Assembly (NCBI GenBank): GCA_019186825.1
Contig: JABARP010000015.1
Coordinates: forward strand, 1,367 to 65,366
Reading direction: 5' to 3'
Length of the DNA: 64,000 bases
Source: Pyrinomonadaceae bacterium
GTDB lineage: Bacteria > Acidobacteriota > Blastocatellia > Pyrinomonadales > Pyrinomonadaceae
Shown here: positions 10,601-45,558 of the stretch, one piece after another
Position numbering within the stretch: the first letter of the stretch is position 1
How the letters are laid out: every line of letters starts with the position of its first letter
Program-made: the position numbers and the translations under genes
The notes under the pieces: generated by a model
Seen by the model: only the letters and a program-made list of their open reading frames with translations
Databases searched by the model: none
What the model was told of the DNA's origin: nothing

Positions 10601-11353
10601 ATGAATTATAAGCTTCTGATCCAATACGACGGCACGGATTTCCACGGTTGGCAGGTGCAGGAGAACGCCCGCACGATCCAGGGCGAGCTTGAGCGCGTTT
10701 GCCGAATGATCGAGGACGCCGATGTAAAGGTTATTGGTTCGGGCCGGACAGATGCGGGAGTTCACGCCGAGGGCCAGGTCGCGAACGTCGTGATGAACAA
10801 ACCATTCACGCCCGATAGTTTGCGTGCGGCGATCAACGGCAACCTCTGGCGTGACATCCGCGTGATGTCGGTTGAAAAGGCTGCGGACGACTTTCATGCG
10901 CGTTTTTCGGCGAAGCAAAAGACCTACGTGTACCGCATCGTGAACGCACCTGTGATGTCGCCGGTTTGGCGGCGTTTTGCTCACCACGAGGCAAAGCCGC
11001 TCGCGCTCGAACAGATGGTCGCGGCTGGAAGATTGTTCCTTGGCGAGCACGACTGGTCGGCGTTCGCTTCGGCGAACACGGAATCCGAAAACAAAGTGCG
11101 GCGGGTTACGGATGTAAGCCTTCGCTCTGTTTGGGACGCTCGGGCACGAGCCTCGCTCATCGAATTTCGCATCACCGCGACAGGCTTCCTGCGGTATATG
11201 GTGCGGTCCATAGTCGGTACGCTGCTTGATGTCGGACACGGCACAAAGAACGGTGATACAATTCAGACGGCGATCGTAACGGGAAATCGGACATTGTGCG
11301 GGCGCACGGCACCCGCGCAAGGGCTAACGCTCGAAAGCGTCGAATACGACTGA
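10601..11353 (+). CDS. truA: tRNA pseudouridine(38-40) synthase TruA
   Basis: The 250-residue enzyme converts uridines 38-40 of the anticodon stem-loop to pseudouridine. The catalytic Asp51 lies in GSGRTDAGVHAEGQ. YDGTDFHGWQ near the N-terminus, FHARFSAKQKTYVYRI and the C-terminal FLRYMVRSIVGTLLDVG are family hallmarks. The ATG at 10601 is preferred over a TTG three codons earlier because TAAGGTG lies about 10 bp ahead of it and the protein then begins in the canonical way. It belongs to the plus-strand cluster pyrE to cdsA. Confidence 0.96.
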   Translation: MNYKLLIQYDGTDFHGWQVQENARTIQGELERVCRMIEDADVKVIGSGRTDAGVHAEGQVANVVMNKPFTPDSLRAAINGNLWRDIRVMSVEKAADDFHARFSAKQKTYVYRIVNAPVMSPVWRRFAHHEAKPLALEQMVAAGRLFLGEHDWSAFASANTESENKVRRVTDVSLRSVWDARARASLIEFRITATGFLRYMVRSIVGTLLDVGHGTKNGDTIQTAIVTGNRTLCGRTAPAQGLTLESVEYD

Positions 11354-11361
11354 TCCTCTCG

Positions 11362-11658
11362 ATGCATATCTATCACATCGTTGAAAGAGAGGTTTGGGAG
11401 AACCTTAAGAGTGAGCTTTACAGCCCGCCGGGCCTCGAGCGTGAAGGTTTTATTCATTGCAGTTTTGCGGAACAGCTCACGGGTGTGATCGGGCGATATT
11501 ATGCGAAAGGCGCCGAACTTGTCGTGCTGGAAATAGATCCGCAATGCCTGATGTCACGCGTCGTGAATGAACCATCGACGAACGAAGAGATCTATCCGCA
11601 TATCTACGGACAAATAAATCTCGCGGCGGTAGTTGCCGTCGAATATCGGAAAGCATGA
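11362..11658 (+). CDS. DUF952 family protein
   Basis: The 98-residue protein begins MHIYHIVEREVWE and contains REGFIHCSFAEQ and EEIYPHIYGQIN, the pattern of DUF952, a small family of unknown biochemical role with an ADP-ribosyltransferase-like fold. It starts 8 bp after truA, and its TGA overlaps the ATG of uppS (ATGA), so it is co-translated with both. No function can be deduced. Confidence 0.85.
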   Translation: MHIYHIVEREVWENLKSELYSPPGLEREGFIHCSFAEQLTGVIGRYYAKGAELVVLEIDPQCLMSRVVNEPSTNEEIYPHIYGQINLAAVVAVEYRKA

Positions 11659-12416
11659 TCGAAGCTTTTGACGGCATCGTCAAACGAAATTCCACTGAGG
11701 CGAAACTGCTCGCTGAGATCGATATCGAGCGCATGCCGCGGCACATCGCGGTGATAATGGACGGCAATGGCCGCTGGGCAAAGCTGCGAGGTAAACCGAG
11801 GATCTTTGGCCATCGCGAAGGTGCAGAATCCGTGCGTGCGATCCTCGACACTTCAGCGCGTCTCGGCATCGAGGCCCTGACGCTTTATGCCTTTTCGACC
11901 GAGAATTGGAAACGGCCGAAGGCAGAGGTTTCGGCGCTGATGTCGATGTTAAAGCGCGTGCTCAAGCGTGAGCTCCGCGAGGTGCACGGTAACAATATTC
12001 GCTTTCGCACGATCGGTGACGTTACGGCGTTGAGCGACGATGTTCGAGAGCAGCTTGCCGCTGCGGAAAAGCTTACTGCCAATAATACCGGCACCGTAAT
12101 GAATGTCGCGTTGAACTACGGCTCAAGGGCAGAGATTGTGCGTGCGGCGAGGCTCGCAGCAAAGAGCGGCGAGATAACGGAAGAGAGCATTGAGGCGAAT
12201 CTTTACACGAGCGGAATGCCGGAGGTGGACCTTTTGATCCGGACGAGCGGAGAATTTCGCATCTCGAATTTTCTTTTGTGGCAGATCGCCTATAGCGAGA
12301 TCTATGTAACGCCGACGTTGTTCCCGGATTTTCGGCGGCGAGAGCTTTTCGAGGCGATCATTGATTTTCAGAAACGCGACAGGCGATATGGCGGTGTGAG
12401 CGCATCGTCGAAGTAA
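11655..12416 (+). CDS. uppS: Isoprenyl transferase (undecaprenyl diphosphate synthase)
   Basis: The 253-residue cis-prenyltransferase condenses isopentenyl diphosphate onto farnesyl diphosphate to make the C55 lipid carrier used in peptidoglycan and polysaccharide export. The signature HIAVIMDGNGRWAK holds catalytic Asp36; GHREGAESVRAI, LTLYAFSTENW and the C-terminal VDLLIRTSGEFRISNFLLWQ complete the active site (split here by natural spacing). About 25 extra N-terminal residues precede the core. The start overlaps the DUF952 stop, and cdsA follows after 5 bp, a common uppS-cdsA pairing. Confidence 0.96.
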   Translation: MIEAFDGIVKRNSTEAKLLAEIDIERMPRHIAVIMDGNGRWAKLRGKPRIFGHREGAESVRAILDTSARLGIEALTLYAFSTENWKRPKAEVSALMSMLKRVLKRELREVHGNNIRFRTIGDVTALSDDVREQLAAAEKLTANNTGTVMNVALNYGSRAEIVRAARLAAKSGEITEESIEANLYTSGMPEVDLLIRTSGEFRISNFLLWQIAYSEIYVTPTLFPDFRRRELFEAIIDFQKRDRRYGGVSASSK

Positions 12417-33751: not shown

Positions 33752-36700
33752 CTAGTTTAGGTAAGAGTGCATTACAGGGAAGTCGCCTTGGATCCCGAAC
33801 GGATAGGCGTAGAAGCCGCTCGAAGTGCCAAGGATATAGAAGACCCCTTGCCCTCCGGGCCTGTACACGGCTTGATCGACCCGGCCATCCCCATCGAAGT
33901 CTCCGGGAGCAGCTATGTCGCCATTCTGCCCAAAGGCTGTGTAGCTAACAGAACCGTCGTCGCTTCGCAGAATGAACCACACTCCGGTTGTTTTCCGCCA
34001 GATCGCGATATCGGTCTTACCGTCTCCGGTGTAATCAGCAGGCACCACCGTGTCTCCAAATTGCCCGAATTGGGCGGCGTAGAAAGAGCCGTCGGCGGAG
34101 TTGTACCTATACCAAACGCCGGTCGACGGCCGATAGACGGCAATGTCTTGTTTACCATCGCCATCGAAATCACCAAGGGTGGGAAGGTCTTCCGCCAACC
34201 CGAACCCTACGGCACGGAAGCCTGTCGAGCTGCCCTGAATATAGAAGGTGCTATGGGTCTCTGGTCGATAGACTGCTAGATCCGTCTTACCATCGCCGTC
34301 ATAGTCGCCAGGAATCGGCTTGTCCCCGTCCATGCCGAACTGTGCGGCTCTGAAAGTATAGCCTTGCGTTTCGAGGATGTACCACGTCCCCGTCGCCTGT
34401 CGAAACACTCCTATATCCGTGAGAAAGTCCGCATCATAGTCGGCCGGGGCGAGCACATCTCCAGGGGCCCCGAACTGGAAGGCTCGGAAGCCCGAATCAC
34501 TGCTTTTTATACGGTACCAGACGTTGGTTGATGGTCTGAAGACGGCAATGTCGGTCTTCCCATCACCATCGAAATCAAGGAGAGGTTTTGTTATCGTGTT
34601 CGCCGTGAGTAGGCGGGCCATACTGGTTCGCGGAAACCCGCTTATCGATTCGAATTGGCCGGCGGCAACGATCTTCCCATCGGGCTGGATCCCGAGTTGG
34701 AAGACCCAGGGAGAGTTGGCCGCATTTGAAAGATCGCTTACTTCAAAGCTATAGTCCACGCGGCCATCATCGAGGAGACGTATTACTCCTTCTCTGGGAG
34801 TTGCGTCCACGGCTGCCAGGAGCTGTCCACCGACCAGGACCTTCCCGTCAGGAAGTCCGACGATCGCATTGACCGATGTCGATATATGCCTAGAGGTAAA
34901 CGTCAGATCCAGCGAACCATCAGCGTTCAGCCGAGCGACCGAGAACCTCGGATGCCCGTCGAATGAACTAAAGGTTCCCCCGACATAGATCTTTCCGTCA
35001 GGTGCGCGGTAAAGGGCGTATATCGACCGGTTTGCTCCGGTCCCTACATTGAATGTTCCATCCAGGGATCCATCGGGGTTCAACCTTGCCACGCCTTGAG
35101 ACCCCATCTGAAAACCAAGCTGTCCGGAGACCAATATCTTTCCGTCGGGTTCGACAAGTATCTTGGAAACGCTTGACGAAGAGACCGCCGGTTGGAAACT
35201 AAGATCCAACGACCCATCGGCGTTCAACCGGGCAAAGTTTTGTCGGGCCGTCCCATTGACACTAGCAAAGGATCCGCCAATAAGGATCTTCCCATCCGCC
35301 TGCACCGCGATAGCCACGATTCGCGCTTGTAGAGGACCGATCTGGGTGGTGAAGCTCGGATCGATACTACCGTCAGGGTTCATTCGCCAACACCCCCTTT
35401 GGGGCGGACCTCCACCGAAGGTGAAGTTAATTGATCCGCCTAGAATGAATTGTCCATTCGATTGGCGGGCGATAGCGTTTATGGGGCTGTTGATCGCATT
35501 GCTTGGAGCGAATGAAGCGTCCGGAACACCATCCGCCGTCAAAAGTCCAACGTATCGCTGACGGACGGCTCCAAGGGAATCAAAAAGTCCCCCGATCAGG
35601 AGATTGCCGTTAGGCAAGATCTCGAGTGCGTGTATAGCACCGATCGAGCCAGCGAAGGCTGAGTAGCCTGAATCCAATACTCCTGCCGAAGTAATACGAG
35701 CGAGTCCTCCGGTCGAGACACCATTCAGAGTCCAAAAATTACCTCCAACGATGACCTTCTCGGATTGGTCCCGAGTCAGCGTCCAAATGGCTCCGCTCAC
35801 AGTAACCGGAAAAGAATTGTCTCGCGTCCCGTCCGGATTCAAGCGGATCAGTAGATCAAAGCTCGTGCCGATAAGAAGTCCACCGTTCTGCTGGACAAGG
35901 ATAGTTCGGATAACCCCGGTTGCATTTGGCTCATATACAGGGAAGGTTGGGTCGAGACTGCCGTCCGTGTTCAGTCGATAGACCTCATCGTATTCGGCCA
36001 CATATAGCTTTCCATCAGCGGTAAGTTCAGCGTCAGAGTTAATAAATCCGAGGTGGCGCTGAGGAGGTATGTAAGCGGTATCAAGGCTCCCATCGGATGC
36101 AAGCTTTACGACACCCCACCTCGCGACGCCGTTGAAAGCTGTGAAATTACCGACGAGGATCAACGAACCGTCTGAGAGAACAAAAGCTCTAGAGATAGAC
36201 GGCGAGTCTGGGCCTGCTCCAGGATCAAAGGTTGGGTCCACGGACCCATCCGGCTGCAGACGTGCGATGTGATTTCTCGGCACCCCGCTCACAACGGTGA
36301 AAACGCCCACCACGATGATCTTTCCATCGGGTTGTACGGCGACGACCGATGCCACTGATCCGCCGAAATCCGGCGCGAATGACTGGTCTAGGGTGCCGTC
36401 GGAGTTGATCCTGGCCATTCCTGGTCTTGGAACACCCGCATACTTGCTGAAGCTCCCGGAAATGAGAGCCTTTCCATCGGAGAGCGGGAAAATTGCGGAA
36501 ATCATTCCCTCGCCTGCACCAATGAATGATGGATCAGCAGTTCCGTCGACATTGATCCGTCCAATGTTCCTGGTAACTATCCCACTCAATGCATTGAATG
36601 TCCCGCCGACCAAGAACTGTCCATTCTCGAGTGGGACTATGGACATTGCGACTGCAGTATCATTGATCGCCATTGGCGTGATCGTAAAAAGTGGATCGAC

Positions 36701-36802
36701 CTGGCCATCATGTTGTACTGCTTTCGTTCGGGAAACAGAGAACAGAACGGTCAAAAGCAGGCCAATGCACAAGATCGACCGGTGAGGTAGGTTCCTATTC
36801 AT
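33752..36802 (-). CDS. Large exported delta-60 repeat / FG-GAP repeat protein
   Basis: The 1016-residue protein has a signal peptide (SILCIGLLLTVLFS, residues about 10-25). About fourteen delta-60-type repeats of some 50 residues follow, each reading roughly VQPDGKIIVVGxF ... ARLxxDGSLDxSF (residues about 45-740). The last 270 residues hold six FG-GAP/VCBS-like repeats with DFDGDGKTDIAVFRPS-type calcium-binding loops. Both repeat types form beta-propellers, so a secreted or surface-attached adhesin-like protein is inferred. No anchor or sorting motif was seen at the C-terminus. ATG 36802 with AGGA upstream is preferred over a frame start at 36871. It forms its own minus-strand unit. Confidence 0.85.
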   Translation of the reverse strand: MNRNLPHRSILCIGLLLTVLFSVSRTKAVQHDGQVDPLFTITPMAINDTAVAMSIVPLENGQFLVGGTFNALSGIVTRNIGRINVDGTADPSFIGAGEGMISAIFPLSDGKALISGSFSKYAGVPRPGMARINSDGTLDQSFAPDFGGSVASVVAVQPDGKIIVVGVFTVVSGVPRNHIARLQPDGSVDPTFDPGAGPDSPSISRAFVLSDGSLILVGNFTAFNGVARWGVVKLASDGSLDTAYIPPQRHLGFINSDAELTADGKLYVAEYDEVYRLNTDGSLDPTFPVYEPNATGVIRTILVQQNGGLLIGTSFDLLIRLNPDGTRDNSFPVTVSGAIWTLTRDQSEKVIVGGNFWTLNGVSTGGLARITSAGVLDSGYSAFAGSIGAIHALEILPNGNLLIGGLFDSLGAVRQRYVGLLTADGVPDASFAPSNAINSPINAIARQSNGQFILGGSINFTFGGGPPQRGCWRMNPDGSIDPSFTTQIGPLQARIVAIAVQADGKILIGGSFASVNGTARQNFARLNADGSLDLSFQPAVSSSSVSKILVEPDGKILVSGQLGFQMGSQGVARLNPDGSLDGTFNVGTGANRSIYALYRAPDGKIYVGGTFSSFDGHPRFSVARLNADGSLDLTFTSRHISTSVNAIVGLPDGKVLVGGQLLAAVDATPREGVIRLLDDGRVDYSFEVSDLSNAANSPWVFQLGIQPDGKIVAAGQFESISGFPRTSMARLLTANTITKPLLDFDGDGKTDIAVFRPSTNVWYRIKSSDSGFRAFQFGAPGDVLAPADYDADFLTDIGVFRQATGTWYILETQGYTFRAAQFGMDGDKPIPGDYDGDGKTDLAVYRPETHSTFYIQGSSTGFRAVGFGLAEDLPTLGDFDGDGKQDIAVYRPSTGVWYRYNSADGSFYAAQFGQFGDTVVPADYTGDGKTDIAIWRKTTGVWFILRSDDGSVSYTAFGQNGDIAAPGDFDGDGRVDQAVYRPGGQGVFYILGTSSGFYAYPFGIQGDFPVMHSYLN

Positions 36803-36904
36803 AATGTGAAGTCCTAATTTACGACGATGATAGTCCAGACCCAAAAATAAAGGCAAGACTTTTGTTCTCAATGAATGCGATCCGTTGCCCCGAGTGTGCG
36901 CCGG

Positions 36905-36944: not shown

Positions 36945-38312
36945 ATGAATTATCAAGAGAACGTACTTGGGCTGATCGGTAACACGCCGCTCGTTAAGAT
37001 CAATAAACTCACAAAGGAAAGGAAGATAAAAGCACAGGTTTTTGCGAAAATGGAGAGCCTGAATCCTGGCTATTCGGTGAAGGACCGCATCGGCGTGTCG
37101 ATGATCGATTGGGCAGAGGAAAAGGGCGTCCTAAAGAAAGGCGGCACGATCATCGAAGCAACGAGCGGCAACACGGGCATCGGGCTCGCGTTGACGGCAG
37201 CCGTGCGGGGATACAAATGCATCTTCGTGCTAACGGAGAAGGTTTCAATCGAGAAGATGCGTTATTTGAAGGGTTTAGGGGCGGATATCGTTGTTTGTCC
37301 TGCGGCGGCAAAGGCCGGCTCGCCGGACCATTACGTCGAGACCGCGAAACGCATCAGCGAGGAAACGCCGAATTCCTTTTACCCGGATCAATACAATCAT
37401 CCCGCGAATCCTGCGGCACATTACCGGACGACCGGCCCCGAGATCTGGCGCGATACCGAGGGTAAGGTCACGCATTTTGTCGCCGGCATCGGTACGGGCG
37501 GGACGATCAGCGGCACGGGACGCTATCTGAAGGAACAGAATCCGAATGTCCGCGTGATCGGCGCCGACCCTTACGGTTCGATCTTCAAGACCTACAAGGA
37601 ATCAGGCCACGTGCCGGAGGCGACGCCGTATCTCGTCGAGGGTATCGGACAATCGAACCCGACCGGAAACGCCGATATGACGACGATCGACGAAGTGGTG
37701 AACATCACGGATCGCGAGTCGTTCGACATGGCGCGTCAGCTTGCGCGAACGGAGGGCATCTTCTGCGGCGGTTCGACGGGGACGAACCTTGCTGGAGCAT
37801 TCAAGATCGCAAAGGACCTCGATGAATCGGCTGTGGTCGTTTTCATCGTGGCCGACACAGGCGAGCATTACCTGACGAAATTCCATTCGGACGAGTGGAT
37901 GAAGGAGAAACTCCTGCTCGAACCGCAGCGTATTACGGCAAGCCTGATCGCGGATACTAAGAGCGAGAATTCGCCCGCCGAGCTGATCTCCGTTTCTCCG
38001 AATGACATTGTGAGCGACGCTCTCACGCGTATGACGGAGGCAGGCATCACGCAGATGCCGGTGCTTGAGGACAATGTCCCGGTCGGTTCATTCCACGAGA
38101 GCTCGATACTTGCAAAGCTGCTTGGCGACAGGGAATTGTTCAACGCGAAGGTTTCCGAGATAATGGATAAGAGTTTTCCGGTCGTCGCGGTCGATACTAG
38201 CCTGAAGGTCATTAAAGAAAAATTGCAAAAACATCCTGCTGTTCTCGTCGAGGATTTTAAGCGAATTACAGGTATAATCACCCGGTCGGACGTTTTGGAT
38301 ATTCACGACTAA
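36945..38312 (+). CDS. Cystathionine beta-synthase (PLP domain plus CBS pair)
   Basis: The 455-residue protein joins a cysteine-synthase-type PLP domain (1-330) to a C-terminal CBS pair (about 338-455). The PLP lysine is Lys46 in NPGYSVKDRIG; EATSGNTGIGLAL binds substrate and GIGTGGTISGTGRYL binds the cofactor phosphate. It condenses serine (or O-acetylserine) with homocysteine or sulfide; the CBS pair suggests control by an adenosyl ligand such as SAM. CBS with this arrangement is common in bacteria. It leads the long plus-strand run to rfbD, though a downstream promoter for the FHA genes cannot be excluded. Confidence 0.93.
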   Translation: MNYQENVLGLIGNTPLVKINKLTKERKIKAQVFAKMESLNPGYSVKDRIGVSMIDWAEEKGVLKKGGTIIEATSGNTGIGLALTAAVRGYKCIFVLTEKVSIEKMRYLKGLGADIVVCPAAAKAGSPDHYVETAKRISEETPNSFYPDQYNHPANPAAHYRTTGPEIWRDTEGKVTHFVAGIGTGGTISGTGRYLKEQNPNVRVIGADPYGSIFKTYKESGHVPEATPYLVEGIGQSNPTGNADMTTIDEVVNITDRESFDMARQLARTEGIFCGGSTGTNLAGAFKIAKDLDESAVVVFIVADTGEHYLTKFHSDEWMKEKLLLEPQRITASLIADTKSENSPAELISVSPNDIVSDALTRMTEAGITQMPVLEDNVPVGSFHESSILAKLLGDRELFNAKVSEIMDKSFPVVAVDTSLKVIKEKLQKHPAVLVEDFKRITGIITRSDVLDIHD

Positions 38313-38328
38313 CCATTTTCACTGGCAG

Positions 38329-38787
38329 ATGAGCGACGCTTGGCAAATGCAGGAGCCGGTTTTCCGCACCTCGGAAGGCGAGATCGTAAAGCCTCGTGCC
38401 AAAGAGGCCGGTGTTCCGCCGCCGCTTCCGCAGGCCGAAGCGGCAAGCTCCAGCGAGGATGCGGCCGTACTCGAGGCTCTCTATGCACCCCCGGAAAACG
38501 TAAAGGCTGAGAGTTCTGATGCGGCGGCGGCTGCGCCTGCTCCGATGGCATTTGCGTCCGCTGAGCCTGCTTTTGTTGAGGCCGGCGGTGTGATCGTTGA
38601 GCAGCCGTATGTTTCGGAAGAATATGACGTCGAGGAGATAAACGCCGCTGTAGCTGCCGCCTCACCTAGAAAGAGGTCGATGGGCGGATTGATCTTCAAG
38701 CTTCTGGCGGCGGCCGTCGTACTCGGAGCCTTAGCGGTTGCCATCATCTTTCTAGCCTGGTTCTTGTTTATGCGGCCGACGGAATAG
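38329..38787 (+). CDS. Tail-anchored, disordered small protein before the FHA genes
   Basis: A 152-residue protein with an Ala/Pro/Glu-rich disordered N-terminal part (1-115) and a single hydrophobic helix close to the C-terminus (LIFKLLAAAVVLGALAVAII, about 122-147) followed by only a few residues. It therefore looks tail-anchored with a cytoplasmic body. No domain is recognised. It is placed 16 bp after the cystathionine synthase gene and 64 bp before the first FHA gene, in the same orientation. A role together with the FHA proteins is possible but unproven. Confidence 0.65.
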   Translation: MSDAWQMQEPVFRTSEGEIVKPRAKEAGVPPPLPQAEAASSSEDAAVLEALYAPPENVKAESSDAAAAAPAPMAFASAEPAFVEAGGVIVEQPYVSEEYDVEEINAAVAAASPRKRSMGGLIFKLLAAAVVLGALAVAIIFLAWFLFMRPTE

Positions 38788-38851
38788 GTTCGCGAAAGGG
38801 CACGATGCCCGGAACACACGAACCTTGAACATTGACCCACTAACCCCTCCA

Positions 38852-40549
38852 ATGCAGTTCGCAACCCTAAAAACTGAAGATGGCGAGGTCGAGCTTTCAA
38901 AGCCCGTAACTTCGATCGGACGCACCTCAGAGAATGACGTTGCGTTCACGGGCGACTCGAATGTCTCGCGTTCGCATGCCGAGATCGAGCTGCGGGACGG
39001 CTTATACTTTTTGATCGATCCGGGCAGCAGCAACGGCACGACCGTCAACGGCGAACCGGTGAAGGGCGAAGTTCAGCTTGCTGACGGTGACAAGATCGTT
39101 TTCGGCGGCTCGGCCAGTGCGGAGTTTCTCTTCGGCTCTCAGACGCCGCAGACGGCATCTGAAAGCGGCGCGCAGGGTGCAGGAGATCCGGCAGCTGACC
39201 TTTCGGGCCAGGCAGGCGGAAATCCGCTTTCGGAGGCGGGCGAACAGATCGGCTATCAGGCTGATTATGCCCTGAACCAGGGCTTGTACGATGTCGGGAG
39301 CGCGGTGCGAAGCGGTGTGACCGGCTCGGCAGGTTCGGCCGCGGGCTCGGCTGCTGGTTCGGTAGGTTCCGCAGGCGTTGCGAGTTCGGCAGGTGCGGCG
39401 GCAGCAAGCGAAACTGCGGCGGCAAGTTCCGGTTCGACGGTGATGGTCGCGGGCCTAGTCGGCGGACTCGCTGTGGTCGCGATGGTCGGCGCAGGCGCAT
39501 ATTACTTTACACGCGGAGCGTCTGCGTGCTCGGCCACTGCGAAGATCGTCAGTCCTGCACAGGGCGATACGATAAACAAACCTACGGATGTACGGCTCGA
39601 CGTCTCGGACACTGACGGCTGCGTTGCGAAGGCTGTTCTGCTCGTCGATCAAAAGCCGGTCGCACAGGCCGAACCGCCGAATTTTGACGCCAGCATCGAT
39701 CCGCAGGCGCTTCCTGAATTGGCAGACGGCGACCTGCATGACCTAACCGTCGCGCTTTATGACAATAACGGCGGCGAGGCGGTTCAGGATAGCTCGGTGA
39801 TGCTTGCGTTCGATTCCCGCTCGGTCGTAAAGCCGGACGAGCAAAAGACGCCGTTGCCCGGACAGACGCCGCCGCCGCAGAATCCTACGGTCGCGAAGGT
39901 TTCGCTGCTTGATGTGCAAAAAATGTCCCAGGCGCTGGTCAAACAGTTTACGGGCGGGCTCGCATACGACCTCTCGGACAAGCAGTTTATGCAGGAGATC
40001 CAAAAACGGACGGCAGAATACGCAGTCCCGGGCTACACGGAGAGAGCCGCGAAATACCGCGACGCGATAAATGTTGCGTTCACGCACGAGCAGAATCTCG
40101 ACGCGCCGCTCGGTTTCATCCTCGCGATGAGCCGCAGCCGGTTCGATCCTGCAAAAAAGGGCGATCTTGCAGGGCTTTGGCAGATGAGCGACGCGTTCGT
40201 TGCCGACAACAAATACAACGGTTCGTGCGGGACGGAGACGATCGCCGATCCGGCACAGAATTGTGCCGCGAAGGCCTGTGCTTTGTATATGAAAGCCCTT
40301 GTTTTCGGCGTTTTCGATTCGGATCCGGTCTATGCCGCCGCCGCATTTGGCAAGGCGCCGGCCGAAGCCGCAGCGTGGAAGGCAACATTTACTGCGGATA
40401 GGTCGAAAATTTGGAGTAATATAAAACAAGCACCTGAACGCGAGCAGCTCGTTAGGTTCTTTGCCGCCGGCATCGTTGCCGAAAATCCGCAAAAATTCGG
40501 GCTAGCGAACGAGCGGCCGCTTTCGGAGCTGTATCGGGTTACGATGTAG
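38852..40549 (+). CDS. FHA - membrane helix - Ig-like - degenerate transglycosylase protein (paralogue 1)
   Basis: The 565-residue protein starts with a cytoplasmic FHA domain (1-95) with an intact core: SIGRTSENDV, SRSHAEI and SSNGTTVNG. A low-complexity Ala/Ser/Gly linker (about 140-195) leads to one membrane helix (VMVAGLVGGLAVVAMVGAG, about 200-222). A periplasmic Ig-like region (about 230-325) and a lysozyme-like domain (about 350-565) follow. In the latter, LAMSRSRFDP aligns with LAMIESEHCP of the next gene, so the catalytic Glu is replaced by Arg428; GLWQMSDAF is kept. It is probably a non-catalytic binder of peptidoglycan or of a partner. Start ATG 38852 gives an FHA beginning; a TTG at 38825 is less likely. 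Confidence 0.82.
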   Translation: MQFATLKTEDGEVELSKPVTSIGRTSENDVAFTGDSNVSRSHAEIELRDGLYFLIDPGSSNGTTVNGEPVKGEVQLADGDKIVFGGSASAEFLFGSQTPQTASESGAQGAGDPAADLSGQAGGNPLSEAGEQIGYQADYALNQGLYDVGSAVRSGVTGSAGSAAGSAAGSVGSAGVASSAGAAAASETAAASSGSTVMVAGLVGGLAVVAMVGAGAYYFTRGASACSATAKIVSPAQGDTINKPTDVRLDVSDTDGCVAKAVLLVDQKPVAQAEPPNFDASIDPQALPELADGDLHDLTVALYDNNGGEAVQDSSVMLAFDSRSVVKPDEQKTPLPGQTPPPQNPTVAKVSLLDVQKMSQALVKQFTGGLAYDLSDKQFMQEIQKRTAEYAVPGYTERAAKYRDAINVAFTHEQNLDAPLGFILAMSRSRFDPAKKGDLAGLWQMSDAFVADNKYNGSCGTETIADPAQNCAAKACALYMKALVFGVFDSDPVYAAAAFGKAPAEAAAWKATFTADRSKIWSNIKQAPEREQLVRFFAAGIVAENPQKFGLANERPLSELYRVTM

Positions 40550-40569
40550 TAACTCGTAGTGTTACGGGT

Positions 40570-42042
40570 ATGAAGTTCTTGTTCGTACAAGAAGTTGACG
40601 GTGAGCCGCACGAGATCGTGTTCGAGAAAGAGCACACGACGATCGGGCGTGCGACGGACAATGATATCCAGCTTGACGACCAGGGACTCTCACGCCTGAA
40701 TTCGACCGTCTATATCGATGGAGAAACGGTGCGGATCGTCGATAACGATTCGACGAACGGAACGCTCGTAAACGACGAACCAGCGGCAAAGGACGGCACG
40801 ATCCTTGAGGACGGCGACACGATCAAGGTCGGCAGTTCGACCGTTTTGACCTTCAAAAAGGTACCGGAGCCGGCAGCGGAAGAAGCATCGGGCGACCAGA
40901 CTGCTGCGGCCGCGGTCGGATCGGCTTCAGCACCAGCACCTGTACCGGCGGCCGTTCAGCCGCCTGCACCGGCACCGAAGCCGCTGAATCTGTTGCCGTT
41001 GGCGATCATCGTCGGGGCGATATTCGTGATCGGCATTTCGGCGGCGGTGATCGCGATGACCGCGTTGACCGGCAAGAACGGGACCGCTTCGACAAATCCG
41101 TACACGGGCGATGACCCGACATTGACGTCGGGCCGCAGCGACGATGCGAATTCAACGACAACATCGAGCACGCCGACAAACTTAGGTTCGACCACAACCA
41201 CGACGACGGCAACTCCAACGGGCGGTGACTTGCCGGTAACCACCTCCACGCCGACGAAGCCTGAATTGCCCGCAAAACAGTATTCTGCGATGTCGGACGC
41301 GGAAAAGCGTGCGTATATCGAGGACCGGGCGATGCGGATCGCACAGGTGATAGGGAATTCGTCAAGCGAAAAGATCCCGCCCGATGCCGTTACGAGGATA
41401 AAGAGCTTCGTTGACGCATACGTTTCGCGGACAAAGGTAAAACCGCTTTCAGGCTGCCGCTTTGGCGACAACCTGCTCGCAACCTATACGCGCGCGAGCA
41501 AGAACGCGCCGTTCATCATTCGGGCGTTCAATGAAAAGGGAATGGACCCGCGCATCGGGCTTTACCTTGCGATGATCGAGAGCGAACACTGCCCGTGTCT
41601 GCAGAGCCACACCGGGCCGCTCGGAATGTTTCAGTTCACGCAGGCGACGGGCCGCCTCCACGGACTCAATACCATTCCCGGTGCGTCGCCTTCAAACCCG
41701 GACGAACGCTGCGAGCCGGAACCGGCTTCGCGTGCCGCGGCCTCGTATATGAAGGCTTTGGCAGGACGTTACGGCACGGGGCCTGCAAGCGTTCCGCTTG
41801 CGATCGGCAGTTATAACAGCGGCGAGGGCGGATTGAGCACGAATCTCGAAAAAGCACTGTCCTCGGGCACGGGGTTGCCGCGCGAATTTTGGACGCTGAT
41901 CGAAAAGAGCGATATGCTCTCGAAACAATTTCAAGCGGAGAACTTCAAATACGTACCGAAGTTCTTTGCAGCGGCGATCATTGGCGAAAATCCGCGCGAT
42001 TTTGGCTTGGATCTGAACCCGATCTCTACTTACACAAAATAG
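40570..42042 (+). CDS. FHA - membrane helix - transglycosylase protein (paralogue 2, catalytic Glu kept)
   Basis: A 490-residue protein of the same plan. The FHA domain (1-95) has TIGRATDNDI and STNGTLVND, but the usual Ser-x-x-His reads SRLNS, so the conserved His is lost. A Pro/Ala linker leads to one membrane helix (LLPLAIIVGAIFVIGISAAV, about 141-160). A Thr/Ser-rich periplasmic spacer (about 175-235) follows, then the SLT-like domain (about 280-490) with Glu337 in YLAMIESEHCPC, GPLGMFQFTQATG, AIGSYNSGEGGL and a C-terminal YVPKFFAAAIIGENP segment as in MltD-type enzymes. It is the only one of the trio likely to cut peptidoglycan. It starts 20 bp after paralogue 1. Confidence 0.85.
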   Translation: MKFLFVQEVDGEPHEIVFEKEHTTIGRATDNDIQLDDQGLSRLNSTVYIDGETVRIVDNDSTNGTLVNDEPAAKDGTILEDGDTIKVGSSTVLTFKKVPEPAAEEASGDQTAAAAVGSASAPAPVPAAVQPPAPAPKPLNLLPLAIIVGAIFVIGISAAVIAMTALTGKNGTASTNPYTGDDPTLTSGRSDDANSTTTSSTPTNLGSTTTTTTATPTGGDLPVTTSTPTKPELPAKQYSAMSDAEKRAYIEDRAMRIAQVIGNSSSEKIPPDAVTRIKSFVDAYVSRTKVKPLSGCRFGDNLLATYTRASKNAPFIIRAFNEKGMDPRIGLYLAMIESEHCPCLQSHTGPLGMFQFTQATGRLHGLNTIPGASPSNPDERCEPEPASRAAASYMKALAGRYGTGPASVPLAIGSYNSGEGGLSTNLEKALSSGTGLPREFWTLIEKSDMLSKQFQAENFKYVPKFFAAAIIGENPRDFGLDLNPISTYTK

Positions 42043-42068
42043 CCCGCCGGTATTTTCCCGTTTTTTGA

Positions 42069-43265
42069 ATGGCTGATCTCCGACTAAAGTTCATTGACGC
42101 CGAGGGCAGCGACGTCTGCTTCGAGACCAGTGAGCAGGTCGTGATCGTCGGCCGGCTCTCGAGCAATACGCTTGTGATCGCCGATGGACGGCTTTCGCGG
42201 GAGCATTTGCGCATCGAACGCGAAGGCTCGGCATGGTATGCCGAAGACCTTGGTTCGAGCAACGGCACGACCCTTAACGGCGAACCGCTGCGAGACCAGC
42301 AGCGAATAAAGGACGGCGACAAACTGAACCTCGGCGGGCTTGAGATCTCGGTCGAGATCGAGCAGCCGCAGCCGGTCGAGCAAGCACCGGTGGTACAAGC
42401 TGCGGTAGTGAACACGCTGGCCGCTCCGCCGCCAGTCGCTGCGGCAACTCCGCCCGCTTCGAGCGACAATTCCGTTAAGTTCTTTCTAATACTCGCGCCG
42501 ATCTTGGGGCTTGTGGTGATCTTGATCGCAGGCGGAGCTTTATTTCTTTCGCGCAATAAAAAAACGGACATCGACGCGAACGATATCTCGTATTCGACGC
42601 CTGAGATCTCGAGCACGCCGACTGCCGACAATACGCCCGCAGCATCGCAGACCGACACGACGGCGACGCCTGAGGTGCCGAGCGGTACGCCTGTGAAGGA
42701 AGATACCGCGACGCAAAAGGTCGAGAAATACACGGCGCAATTCATGCGAAAGGCGGCAAAGAATGATCCGCGATATTTCCTGACGAGTGCACAGGCGGGC
42801 GAGGTCGCAAAACGCATTCAAAGCATGAGCGGCGCCGTGAAGGCGAATCTTCCTTCGATAACGAAAAACTCGGCTGAACTGAGTAAACTCGGGGCTTCAA
42901 GCGGCCTGAATTCGGATTTTCTGGCTGCGGCGGCCCTTGCGAAGCTCGGCACGAGCCGAGGCGATGCGATCGCGGCCGCGAGGTCGATGTCCGGCGTACT
43001 TTCGCGGCTAACGATCCCGATCGGCAACGAGTTGGGTGATGACTGCCTACTGATGATCGCGGCATACGACCAGGGTGCAGCGGGCGATTTTATGAAGATG
43101 AGGAATATGCTCCAGGACGTTGCGACAAAGTCGAACGCACCGGCGCGTGAGATCCGCTCGATCTGGTTCCTGAATAAGTCTGGTAAGATAACGCCGCAGG
43201 AATATGAGTTCGCTCTGCGTTTCCTTGCGGCAGGTGCGATAATGCAGGCACCGACGGAATTTTGA
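42069..43265 (+). CDS. FHA - membrane helix - relic transglycosylase protein (paralogue 3)
   Basis: A 398-residue protein with an intact FHA core (VIVGRLSSNTL, LSREHLRI, GSSNGTTLNG), a Pro/Ala linker and one membrane helix (FFLILAPILGLVVILIAGGA, about 138-157). The periplasmic part (about 160-398) keeps the general helical plan and the terminal RFLAAGAIMQAP segment shared with paralogues 1 and 2, but shows neither the ESxF-type catalytic glutamate nor the GLMQ-like motif; AAYDQGAAGDF replaces the usual AxYNxGEG. It is thus a relic or binding module. It follows paralogue 2 by 26 bp and precedes the YkgJ-type gene by 15 bp. Confidence 0.8.
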   Translation: MADLRLKFIDAEGSDVCFETSEQVVIVGRLSSNTLVIADGRLSREHLRIEREGSAWYAEDLGSSNGTTLNGEPLRDQQRIKDGDKLNLGGLEISVEIEQPQPVEQAPVVQAAVVNTLAAPPPVAAATPPASSDNSVKFFLILAPILGLVVILIAGGALFLSRNKKTDIDANDISYSTPEISSTPTADNTPAASQTDTTATPEVPSGTPVKEDTATQKVEKYTAQFMRKAAKNDPRYFLTSAQAGEVAKRIQSMSGAVKANLPSITKNSAELSKLGASSGLNSDFLAAAALAKLGTSRGDAIAAARSMSGVLSRLTIPIGNELGDDCLLMIAAYDQGAAGDFMKMRNMLQDVATKSNAPAREIRSIWFLNKSGKITPQEYEFALRFLAAGAIMQAPTEF

Positions 43266-43280
43266 GAGTGTGCAAAAGAG

Positions 43281-44117
43281 ATGAGCGATGAATGGATAAC
43301 AGGTAATTTTACGCTTCGCGTTCACGGTGAACCGATCGAGATGCAGGTCACCGTACCGACGGCTAAGGTGAAGCCGCAGCGGATGCTGCCGCTCTTTCAG
43401 CAGATGGCGTCGAGCGTTGTCGATGCGTGTGTCGCCGTGGTCGAGGGCGAAGGCGAAAAGGTATCGTGCAAGGCGGGGTGCGGAGCTTGCTGCACTCAGG
43501 CGGTGCCCATCTCCGAGGTCGAGGCATATCGCATTGCCGAGATCGTCAACGAGATGCCGGAGGAGCGTCAGGCCGTTGTTCGCAAGCGTTTTGCAGAATC
43601 CCTTGCACATTTTCGAAAGATAAAGTGGTTTGACGAACTCATCGGCCTGAAGGATATGGCGTACGAAGGTTCGCCCGATTTTTCGGCGGAAAAGTATGCC
43701 GACGTCGTGACTAGGTATATGAAGCAGGGATATTCCTGCCCGTTCCTTGAGAATGGATCATGCTCGATCTACGAAGAGCGGCCTGCGGTCTGTCGCGAGT
43801 ATCTCGTAACGTCACCCGCGGAAAATTGTTCCGACCCGCGTCCCGAAACGATCAAGAAGGTGCCGATCTTCCTAAGGCCGTCAAAGGCACTGCTGAAACT
43901 TGGGAAAACGGAGACGACCGAGAATTGGTCTTCCGTGATCTTGATCGAGGCCCTGGACCTTGTTGAGAAGAATCCCGACCGGTTGGAAATGAAAACAGGG
44001 CCCGAATGGACCGAAGAATTCTTTAATGCATTGGCGTCGACCGATCGGATCCTGAAGGACGATCCCGAACCCGCCCGACGCCGCAAAAAACCGCGACATT
44101 CAAAGAAGGGACGCTAG
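43281..44117 (+). CDS. YkgJ-type cysteine-cluster (Fe-S/zinc) protein
   Basis: The 278-residue protein has the cysteine arrangement of the YkgJ/UPF0153 family: SCKAGCGACCTQAVPI in the N-terminal third, then SCPFLENGSCSIYEERPAVCREY and a final Cys in NCSDP. The cluster is taken to bind iron-sulfur or zinc; some members are linked to flagellin lysine methylation and others to protein modification, but the activity here is unknown. The C-terminal 25 residues are strongly basic (RRRKKPRHSKKGR). It sits between the FHA trio and tssK on the same strand. Confidence 0.8.
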   Translation: MSDEWITGNFTLRVHGEPIEMQVTVPTAKVKPQRMLPLFQQMASSVVDACVAVVEGEGEKVSCKAGCGACCTQAVPISEVEAYRIAEIVNEMPEERQAVVRKRFAESLAHFRKIKWFDELIGLKDMAYEGSPDFSAEKYADVVTRYMKQGYSCPFLENGSCSIYEERPAVCREYLVTSPAENCSDPRPETIKKVPIFLRPSKALLKLGKTETTENWSSVILIEALDLVEKNPDRLEMKTGPEWTEEFFNALASTDRILKDDPEPARRRKKPRHSKKGR

Positions 44118-44205
44118 AAACACGCTGCCGGAGACAAGTGCGGTTTACTAAAAGGCATAAGTCGGTTTACTATCTTATTGCTTTTACAAGCGTTATCCCG
44201 AAGCT

Positions 44206-45558
44206 ATGAGCAAATATAGAAAGATCGTCTGGAACGAAGGAATGCTGCTGACTCCGCAGCATTTCCAGCAATGGGATAATTATCACGAGGAACTCGTGAA
44301 TTCGCGCGTGCGCTCGGTCGCACCGTATTCCTGCGGCGTTCTGAGCATGCAGATCAACCACGAAGCCATCGGCAATGCGAATTTTCAGATCACTGCCTGC
44401 CGTGCCGTGATGCCCGATGGCCTGTTCCTAAATTTCCCTGATCAGGAAGGCGCACCGGACCTGCGGCCCGTGGGCGATCATTTTCACGCCGAGCAGGAGA
44501 AGCTCGGTGTTTATCTCGCGATCCCTGCAAAGAAGATGGGTGAGGCGAATTTTCAGGGAAGCGGTGCCGCACCGCAGCCGAATATTCGCTATCTGCAGGA
44601 AGGCGCGCTTGTCCGCGACGAGACGAGCGGCACGAACGAACAGCCGATCGCCTACGCACGCAACAATGTCCGGATCGTCTTTGACGACGAGATCCGCGAC
44701 GGATTCTCATCGATAAAGATCGCTGAATTGACGCGGACGCCGACCGGACAGCTACAGATCTCGAACGAATATATTCCGCCGATCCTCGACGTTACGGCGT
44801 CGGACTGGCTCGTCAGTATGCTGCGGCAGCTTGTCGAGGTGCTTATCACAAAGAGCGGCAGCCTCGGCGAACAGCGACGCCAGCGGCAAGCGGGCCTCGC
44901 GGACTTTACAACGTCGGACGCAGGCGTTTTTTGGCTGCTGCACACGATAAATTCGTCGATCCCGACGATCTCGCATTATTTCCGCGCGCAGCTCGTTCAT
45001 CCCGAAAAGCTCTATCTCGAGATGGCGACACTTGCGGGCAAGCTGATGACCTTCTCGACGGATCACAATCCGAAGGACATCGTAAAATACGATCACGACG
45101 ATCTTTATTTCACTTTCTATACGCTGAACGCGCAGCTTCGCCTGCTGCTCGAAACCGTCATCCCGAGCCGCTGCGTTCCGATACCGCTCGAGAAGGTTCG
45201 CGATGCGCTGTATGTCGGCCGCGTCGAGGACGAGCGTCTCTTGAAAGAGGCAGGATTCTTCCTCGCCGTCCGCTCGCAGATACCCGAAGCAAAGCTCATC
45301 GAGGGCGTGCCGCGTGTCGTGAAGATCGCATCGCGCGATGTTATCGATACGGTGATCGGGTCGGCGCTTCCGGGCGTTGTGCTCTCGTATTCGAATCCGC
45401 CGCCGGCACCGATCCCGGCCCGCATCGGGTTCAAATATTTCAGTCTCGATTCCCACGGCCCTTATTGGGACGGCATACGCGGTTCGAAGGTTCTCGCGGT
45501 CTATGTGCCTGACGAGATACCGGGCGAAAAGCTCGAGATGTACGCCGTAAAGCCTTAA
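44206..45558 (+). CDS. tssK: Type VI secretion baseplate protein TssK homologue
   Basis: The 450-residue protein matches TssK in length and order: IVWNEGMLLTPQHFQQWDNY at the N-terminus is the hallmark, followed by LLHTINSSIPTISHYFR in the middle and a C-terminal KYFSLDSHGPYWDGIRGSK segment. TssK is a trimer that joins the baseplate (TssF/G) to the membrane complex (TssJLM) and is related to phage receptor-binding proteins. No tssA, B, C, E, F, G, L, M, clpV, hcp or vgrG was found in the 44 kb before or the 18 kb after. The gene may belong to a dispersed T6SS or to a different envelope assembly with the FHA proteins. An 88-bp gap precedes it. Confidence 0.88.
   Translation: MSKYRKIVWNEGMLLTPQHFQQWDNYHEELVNSRVRSVAPYSCGVLSMQINHEAIGNANFQITACRAVMPDGLFLNFPDQEGAPDLRPVGDHFHAEQEKLGVYLAIPAKKMGEANFQGSGAAPQPNIRYLQEGALVRDETSGTNEQPIAYARNNVRIVFDDEIRDGFSSIKIAELTRTPTGQLQISNEYIPPILDVTASDWLVSMLRQLVEVLITKSGSLGEQRRQRQAGLADFTTSDAGVFWLLHTINSSIPTISHYFRAQLVHPEKLYLEMATLAGKLMTFSTDHNPKDIVKYDHDDLYFTFYTLNAQLRLLLETVIPSRCVPIPLEKVRDALYVGRVEDERLLKEAGFFLAVRSQIPEAKLIEGVPRVVKIASRDVIDTVIGSALPGVVLSYSNPPPAPIPARIGFKYFSLDSHGPYWDGIRGSKVLAVYVPDEIPGEKLEMYAVKP

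What the first reader, a model, noticed from the sequence alone, without database searches (positions are those of the whole stretch)
38329..45558. Putative envelope system: three FHA - membrane helix - transglycosylase-like paralogues next to a YkgJ-type protein and an isolated TssK
Seen: three consecutive genes (38852, 40570, 42069) share the order FHA domain, one membrane helix, extracytoplasmic lysozyme-like domain, spaced 20-26 bp apart, and are followed on the same strand by a cysteine-cluster protein and a TssK homologue; a tail-anchored small protein precedes them. Known: FHA domains bind phosphothreonine; FHA proteins and kinases control type VI secretion by phosphorylation; transglycosylases open peptidoglycan for envelope-spanning machines; TssK links baseplate to membrane complex. 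Inference: the cluster could be a phosphorylation-gated peptidoglycan-remodelling station for a T6SS-like or other contractile or envelope machine. I know of no described system with this set of genes.
Basis: partly seen in the sequence, partly recalled or inferred. Interest (0 to 1): 0.8.

Follow-up and report, generated by a model that had tools for sequence, protein, structure and literature searches.

The report
FHA-tethered wall-enzyme trio of T6SS
Three linked genes in an uncultured bacterium (Acidobacteriota, Blastocatellia) are the dispersed front end of a complete type VI secretion system, and appear to give that molecular harpoon its own membrane-tethered, phosphorylation-responsive cell-wall-cutting module, an arrangement I found no description of in the literature I could search.

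Summary
Three consecutive genes encode FHA domain, one membrane helix and a periplasmic domain, followed by a CxxCxxCC protein and a full-length TssK. TssK is not an orphan. The same genome holds a complete T6SS in three pieces: the window piece, TssL-TssM-TagJ on contig C2, and TssA-B-C-Hcp-E-F-G-ClpV-VgrG on contig C19. In most relatives these form one contiguous cluster, with the trio directly upstream of TssK-TssL-TssM. The split happened once, in an ancestor of eight sampled genomes. Among 37 congeneric genomes the trio is in 27 of 28 T6SS carriers and 0 of 9 non-carriers (p = 8e-8). Elsewhere in Acidobacteriota the slot before TssK can hold the classical FHA protein TagH; in Blastocatellia the trio sits there. 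Only the middle paralogue keeps the lytic-transglycosylase glutamate (25/25); the first has lost it (0/24) and the third is degenerate. The phosphothreonine-binding residues are conserved. No TssJ was detected. Best reading: an FHA-linked, T6SS-dedicated peptidoglycan-opening module with one likely enzyme and two pseudoenzyme partners. T6SS membership is firm (about 0.95). The phospho-gated enzyme mechanism is inferred (about 0.5). New variant of a known kind.

The parts
36945..38312 (+). Cystathionine beta-synthase/cysteine synthase-CBS gene; conserved upstream flank of the T6SS cluster in the genus, probably not part of the machine
   Evidence: PALP 7e-82 and two CBS stretches; same gene upstream of the trio in nearly all relatives
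38329..38787 (+). sTM: small tail-anchored protein with a short cytoplasmic motif W-x-[ML]-[PQ]-x-P-x-F-[RQ]-x-[ST]-x-G and one C-terminal membrane helix
   Evidence: Motif in 20 of 20 clusters where an sTM ORF was found, position conserved; helix 125-143
38852..40549 (+). FHA1: FHA - TM - Big_7 Ig domain - degenerate SLT domain (pseudo-transglycosylase)
   Evidence: Pfam; catalytic Glu replaced by Arg in 23/24 and Gln in 1/24 orthologues; C-domain matches FHA2 C-domain 99.5%
40570..42042 (+). FHA2: FHA - TM - SLT/MltD-like lytic transglycosylase, catalytic Glu337 retained
   Evidence: SLT 2.5e-14; E in 25/25 orthologues; MltD structure 8rhe E 1.2e-10, T7 gp16 2.6e-10
42069..43265 (+). FHA3: FHA - TM - helical periplasmic domain, strongly degenerate SLT relative
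   Evidence: FHA 1.6e-17; no Pfam SLT match in 20 of 20 members; hhalign to FHA1/FHA2 C-domains 84-95% vs controls 0-0.5%; confident helical model
43281..44117 (+). CxxCxxCC (YkgJ-type) metal-cluster protein; accessory, absent from four of the related clusters
   Evidence: PF03692 1.6e-9; missing between FHA3 and TssK in G009, G015, G017, G028
44206..45558 (+). TssK, T6SS baseplate subunit, full length
   Evidence: PF05936 1.1e-126, TIGR03353 1.7e-115; only copy in the genome
45577..46215 (+). Zinc-ribbon + bacterial PH (bPH_2) membrane protein; follows TssK only in the clade with the split cluster, so probably a neighbour rather than a T6SS part
   Evidence: Pfam; found only in G000, G003, G014, G018, G022 in that position

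Best explanation
The window holds the front third of a dispersed, otherwise complete type VI secretion system. The FHA-TM-SLT trio is a T6SS-dedicated envelope module that sits where other Acidobacteriota encode TagH. Proposed mechanism: (1) shown by sequence: three single-pass proteins carry a cytoplasmic FHA domain with conserved phosphothreonine-binding residues and a periplasmic SLT-family domain; only FHA2 keeps the catalytic glutamate. (2) Inferred: when a Ser/Thr kinase encoded elsewhere phosphorylates a T6SS membrane or baseplate protein (TssL, the small tail-anchored protein, or a trio member), the FHA domains dock there and gather the trio around the nascent TssL-TssM complex and TssK. 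(3) Inferred: FHA2 then cleaves peptidoglycan locally so the TssM periplasmic part can pass, while FHA1 and FHA3, as pseudoenzymes, bind glycan or protein partners to position and restrain FHA2 or to brace the complex in the wall, possibly helping to make up for the missing TssJ. Confidence: T6SS component about 0.95; dedicated peptidoglycan-opening role about 0.65; phospho-FHA gating about 0.5. The figure below is for the combined mechanism.
For: Complete T6SS in the same genome: TssL, TssM and TagJ/ImpE on C2; TssA, B, C, Hcp, E, F, G, ClpV, VgrG on C19; TssK in the window. One contiguous cluster sTM-FHA1-FHA2-FHA3-(YkgJ)-TssK-TssL-TssM-TagJ-TssA-B-C-Hcp-E-F-G-ClpV-VgrG in relatives, e.g. 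G020 and G033; by my count 39 named contigs carry trio genes and TssK together. Co-occurrence 27/28 vs 0/9, p = 8e-8, and the trio persists where it has moved away from TssK (G248, G349). TagH stands next to TssK in other Acidobacteriota. Catalytic Glu 25/25 in FHA2, 0/24 in FHA1; FHA Arg/Ser/Asn nearly invariant. FHA2 C-domain matches MltD. Precedents: phospho-TssL-Fha docking (PMC3953482), PpkA-dependent TssK assembly (PMC6657622), MltE required for T6SS assembly and dedicated LTGs exceptional in T6SS clusters (PMC10433429).
Against: No kinase or phosphatase recognised in the cluster; 14 or more strong kinase hits elsewhere in the genome, none on C2, C14 or C19. No enzyme activity, interaction or phosphosite has been shown. 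FHA3's SLT ancestry rests on profile comparison only; Foldseek lists were filled by the FHA domain and did not test the periplasmic domains. In the window's own clade FHA2 has Asn in place of the conserved FHA His. In this genome the pieces are unlinked, so co-regulation is not shown.
Confidence: 0.5

Rival explanations
1. The trio belongs to the T6SS but is mainly structural: the FHA proteins form an inner-membrane to peptidoglycan scaffold that stands in for TssJ and TagH, and the FHA2 enzyme is secondary.
For: No TssJ by profile in any T6SS-carrying relative; TagH replaced in position; two of three paralogues have lost the catalytic Glu but keep the domain; TssJ-less T6SSs elsewhere use lineage-specific membrane proteins (PMC10564176).
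Against: The catalytic Glu of FHA2 is invariant in 25/25 sequences down to about 30% identity, which a pure scaffold would not need.
Confidence: 0.25
2. The FHA proteins are a signalling module: the periplasmic SLT-like domains sense peptidoglycan damage or an incoming attack and the FHA side switches T6SS assembly on, as TagQRST-PpkA-Fha does in Pseudomonas.
For: Two of three SLT domains are degenerate, as expected of sensors; relatives encode Ser/Thr kinases fused to SLT domains of the same family, so this domain serves as a kinase ectodomain in the family.
Against: FHA domains read phosphorylation rather than write it; no cognate kinase is linked; FHA2 looks catalytically intact.
Confidence: 0.2
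3. Chance neighbourhood: the FHA trio serves a general cell-wall or division role and sits next to tssK by accident.
For: In the window genome the rest of the T6SS is on other contigs.
Against: Strict co-occurrence with T6SS and conserved synteny in dozens of genomes; genomes without T6SS lack full-length FHA2.
Confidence: 0.03

Closest known systems
TagH/Fha (TIGR03354), T6SS-associated FHA protein of the threonine phosphorylation pathway
   Same: N-terminal FHA domain, gene directly beside tssK; related Acidobacteriota have true TagH in that slot
   Different: No TagH C-terminal domain; instead a membrane helix and a periplasmic SLT-family domain; three paralogues instead of one
MltE recruited to the EAEC T6SS (housekeeping lytic transglycosylase; PMC10433429)
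   Same: Lytic transglycosylase used to pass a T6SS membrane complex through peptidoglycan (function inferred here)
   Different: Here the enzyme is encoded in the T6SS cluster, MltD/SLT-like, inner-membrane tethered and fused to an FHA domain, with two pseudoenzyme paralogues
TagX of Acinetobacter T6SS (cluster-encoded peptidoglycan hydrolase, TssJ-less T6SS; PMC10433429, PMC10564176)
   Same: Cluster-encoded wall hydrolase in a T6SS without recognisable TssJ
   Different: TagX is not described as an FHA protein, and is called an endopeptidase in one source and a transglycosylase in the other; no trio, no phospho-binding domain
Evolved TssL/TagL with peptidoglycan-binding domains (PMC10433429)
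   Same: T6SS membrane protein reaching the wall
   Different: Wall-binding only, no catalytic domain, no FHA

Membership tests
Type VI secretion system | Contractile sheath TssB-TssC, tube Hcp, spike VgrG, ClpV | tested here: met
   C19: TIGR03358 2e-58, TIGR03355 4e-223, Hcp 2e-11 (below its curated cut-off), VgrG 2e-161, ClpV 1312 bits
Type VI secretion system | Baseplate TssE, TssF, TssG, TssK | tested here: met
   TssE 1e-31, TssF 2e-204, TssG 1e-106 on C19; TssK 2e-115 in window
Type VI secretion system | Membrane complex TssL-TssM | tested here: met
   DotU 8e-45 and IcmF domains on C2
Type VI secretion system | Outer-membrane lipoprotein TssJ (lacking in some accepted T6SSs) | tested here: inconclusive
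   No PF12790 match above cut-off in any of 60 relatives including all T6SS carriers; a diverged TssJ cannot be excluded
TagH (TIGR03354) | N-terminal FHA domain | tested here: met
   FHA in all three
TagH (TIGR03354) | TagH C-terminal domain and whole-protein score above cut-off | tested here: not met
   Matches cover essentially the FHA and linker region, 34-53 bits against a cut-off of 120; true TagH of other Acidobacteriota score 303-315
Family 1 (SLT/MltD) lytic transglycosylase: FHA2 | SLT domain with catalytic Glu in an E-S/T motif | tested here: met
   PF01464 2.5e-14; Glu invariant 25/25
Family 1 (SLT/MltD) lytic transglycosylase: FHA1 | Catalytic Glu | tested here: not met
   Arg in 23/24, Gln in 1/24
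Family 1 (SLT/MltD) lytic transglycosylase: FHA3 | Recognisable SLT domain with catalytic Glu | tested here: not met
   No Pfam SLT in 20 members; no conserved Glu in the aligned region
Phosphothreonine-binding FHA domain | Conserved Arg, Ser and Asn of the phosphothreonine pocket | tested here: met
   FHA1 24/24 for each; FHA2 23/24 for each; FHA3 23, 23 and 20 of 24
Threonine phosphorylation pathway (PpkA/PppA) | Dedicated kinase encoded with the T6SS | tested here: not met
   No kinase hit on the contigs that hold the T6SS pieces; PppA not searched

The most novel reading that the evidence does not exclude
A T6SS lineage in Blastocatellia has replaced both TagH and TssJ by a heteromeric assembly of FHA-TM-(pseudo)transglycosylase proteins, so that phosphothreonine signalling in the cytoplasm directly licenses hole-cutting in the wall at the T6SS assembly site, with two pseudoenzymes as built-in regulators or anchors of one active enzyme.
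Probability: 0.25. Interest if true: 0.78.

Novelty: new variant of a known kind. Interest (0 to 1): 0.6.

Why it matters
How the wide T6SS membrane complex crosses peptidoglycan, and how that step is timed, is an open question: dedicated lytic transglycosylases are described as exceptional in T6SS clusters (PMC10433429). Here several families of one bacterial class appear to have hard-wired one into the system, on the same polypeptide as a phospho-reader that sits in TagH's place. If true, one point mutation (FHA2 E337) and one FHA pocket mutation would separate wall-opening from signalling. The conserved loss of the catalytic residue in two sister proteins also offers a natural test of pseudoenzyme function.

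Tried and rejected
Orphan TssK: rejected, since a full T6SS is present in the genome. The trio as TagH homologues: rejected by domain content. Cell-division or general wall role: rejected by co-occurrence. Foldseek and VIA-align of the FHA1 and FHA3 models: lists filled by FHA domains, so nothing learned about the periplasmic domains; absence of SLT rows there is not evidence. PDB profile searches with the C-domains of FHA1 and FHA3 alone gave no credible relatives, so their SLT kinship rests on hhalign to FHA2 and on 7 of 19 FHA1 members with weak Pfam SLT matches. Literature searches for FHA plus T6SS plus transglycosylase, and for Acidobacteriota or Blastocatellia T6SS, found no description of this arrangement in the open-access library; subscription papers are not covered. 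The TssL N-terminus carries a Thr in a motif K-N/K-D-L-x-[TA]-F-A-G-P that is common but not invariant in the genus (Ala in G026), so TssL is only a weak candidate ligand.
Full report
Observation. Pfam and NCBIfam support FHA in all three paralogues, SLT clearly in the second, a Big_7 Ig domain and a weak SLT match in the first, none in the third, a CxxCxxCC protein, and a full-length TssK. One membrane helix per paralogue and a C-terminal helix in the small upstream protein were found by hydropathy.

TssK is not an orphan. The window lies in a 3.2-Mb, 95%-complete genome in 28 contigs. The same genome carries TssL, TssM and TagJ/ImpE together on C2 and TssA, B, C, Hcp, E, F, G, ClpV and VgrG together on C19. 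One TssK, one TssC and one TssM were found.

The pieces belong together. In relatives of the same genus the order is CysK/CBS, small tail-anchored protein, FHA1, FHA2, FHA3, usually the CxxCxxCC gene, TssK, TssL, TssM, TagJ, TssA, TssB, TssC, Hcp, TssE, TssF, TssG, ClpV, VgrG in one run (G020: L084/L085; G033: L099/L100). The named contigs are Pyrinomonadaceae and other Blastocatellia MAGs of the Acidobacteriota; by my count 39 of them carry both trio genes and TssK. On a TssK tree the eight genomes in which TssL no longer follows TssK form one side of a branch (support 92/96; 94% of bootstrap trees), so one break explains them. In the window's closest relatives the second piece is broken again, with TssM and TssC lying far apart. 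After the break the zinc-ribbon/PH gene and dTDP-sugar genes lie next to TssK in the window's close relatives.

Co-occurrence. Of 37 congeneric genomes, 28 have T6SS genes and 27 of these have a high-scoring FHA2; the exception, G002, is 89% complete and also lacks the TssK piece. None of the 9 T6SS-free genomes has FHA2 (Fisher p = 8e-8; the genomes are related, so the p-value is indicative only). In G248 and G349 the trio is on a different contig from TssK but still present, while six T6SS-free members of the family lack full-length FHA2. At phylum scale FHA-SLT genes beside TssK were seen only in the window's class; other Acidobacteriota T6SS loci examined lack them, and at least three have a classical TagH beside TssK.

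One enzyme, two pseudoenzymes. The FHA2 C-domain matches MltD (8rhe, E 1.2e-10) and T7 gp16. Its catalytic Glu (Glu337) is kept in 25/25 orthologues reaching into other families of the class. In FHA1 the same column is Arg in 23/24 and Gln in 1/24; its C-domain is nevertheless a clear relative of FHA2's (hhalign 99.5%, E 4e-23). FHA3 has no SLT match in 20 members but aligns to FHA1 and FHA2 C-domains at 84-95% against 0-0.5% for reversed and unrelated controls, and its model is confidently helical. Fold searches could not test this further because the FHA domain filled the lists.

Phospho-reading. The Arg, Ser and Asn of the FHA phosphothreonine pocket are near-invariant (FHA1 24/24 each; FHA2 23/24 each; FHA3 23, 23 and 20 of 24). 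The window's own clade has Asn instead of His in FHA2. No kinase lies on the contigs that hold T6SS pieces, though the genome has many, so any gating would use a kinase encoded elsewhere.

No TssJ. PF12790 gives nothing above cut-off in any relative. TssJ-less T6SSs exist, with lineage-specific membrane proteins thought to compensate (PMC10564176).

Mechanism. Published work shows Fha docking on phospho-TssL in Agrobacterium (PMC3953482), kinase-dependent TssK assembly in Pseudomonas (PMC6657622), and a need for the transglycosylase MltE in enteroaggregative E. coli T6SS, with cluster-encoded transglycosylases called exceptional (PMC10433429). The simplest synthesis is that the trio combines these roles: phospho-dependent docking at the membrane complex and baseplate on the inside, and local wall opening by FHA2 on the outside, with FHA1 and FHA3 as positioning or restraining partners. 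Steps shown: gene content, synteny, co-occurrence, residue conservation. Steps inferred: docking partners, kinase, enzyme activity, role of the pseudoenzymes and of the small tail-anchored protein with its conserved W-x-M-P-x-P-x-F motif (20/20).

Verdict. Real, conserved, and a part of a T6SS. A new variant of a known kind rather than a new kind of machine.

Noticed in passing
L249:7750-10617, L250:8880-10973 (also likely several of L175-L198): Ser/Thr protein kinases with a C-terminal (presumably extracytoplasmic) SLT domain related to FHA2's, one also with an FGE-sulfatase domain; in L250 beside a divergent stand-alone SLT gene. Occurs also in genomes without T6SS. Kinase and FHA reader thus share one wall-domain family in this clade.
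   Followed up: partly
L245:9330-10904, L247:9250-10797, L246:9267-10850, L248:8791-10365, L177:25-1620: A fused TssB-TssC-like sheath protein (VipA plus VipB in one chain; both domains checked in L177, L245 and L247), in the four genus loci next to a gene that by its start looks like mnmG and near parA/parB-like genes, often also near an mnmE-like gene, without other T6SS genes; a second PF05943 hit of this score class occurs in about 17 of 37 genus members but not in the window genome.
   Followed up: partly
L177:8966-10516 and 10701-12200: An FHA-Big_7-SLT and FHA-SLT pair about 7 kb from the fused TssBC gene, with no canonical T6SS genes recognised on that contig stretch.
   Followed up: partly
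L081:12710-14221 (G000:C19:47710-49221): A fourth FHA-membrane protein ending in DUF5715, followed by a large VWA-domain protein; about 7 kb from the VgrG end of the T6SS piece on C19, but its homologue in G026 lies about 260 kb from the T6SS genes.
   Followed up: partly
window 38329-38787: Small tail-anchored protein with an invariant short cytoplasmic motif (W-x-M-P-x-P-x-F-[RQ]-x-[ST]-x-G), including an invariant Ser/Thr position; possible docking peptide.
   Followed up: yes
window 33752-36871 (-): 1039-aa protein of repeated 'LNPDGSLD..F' units followed by FG-GAP-like 'DYDGDGKTD' repeats; typical large surface or secreted protein, not examined.
   Followed up: no
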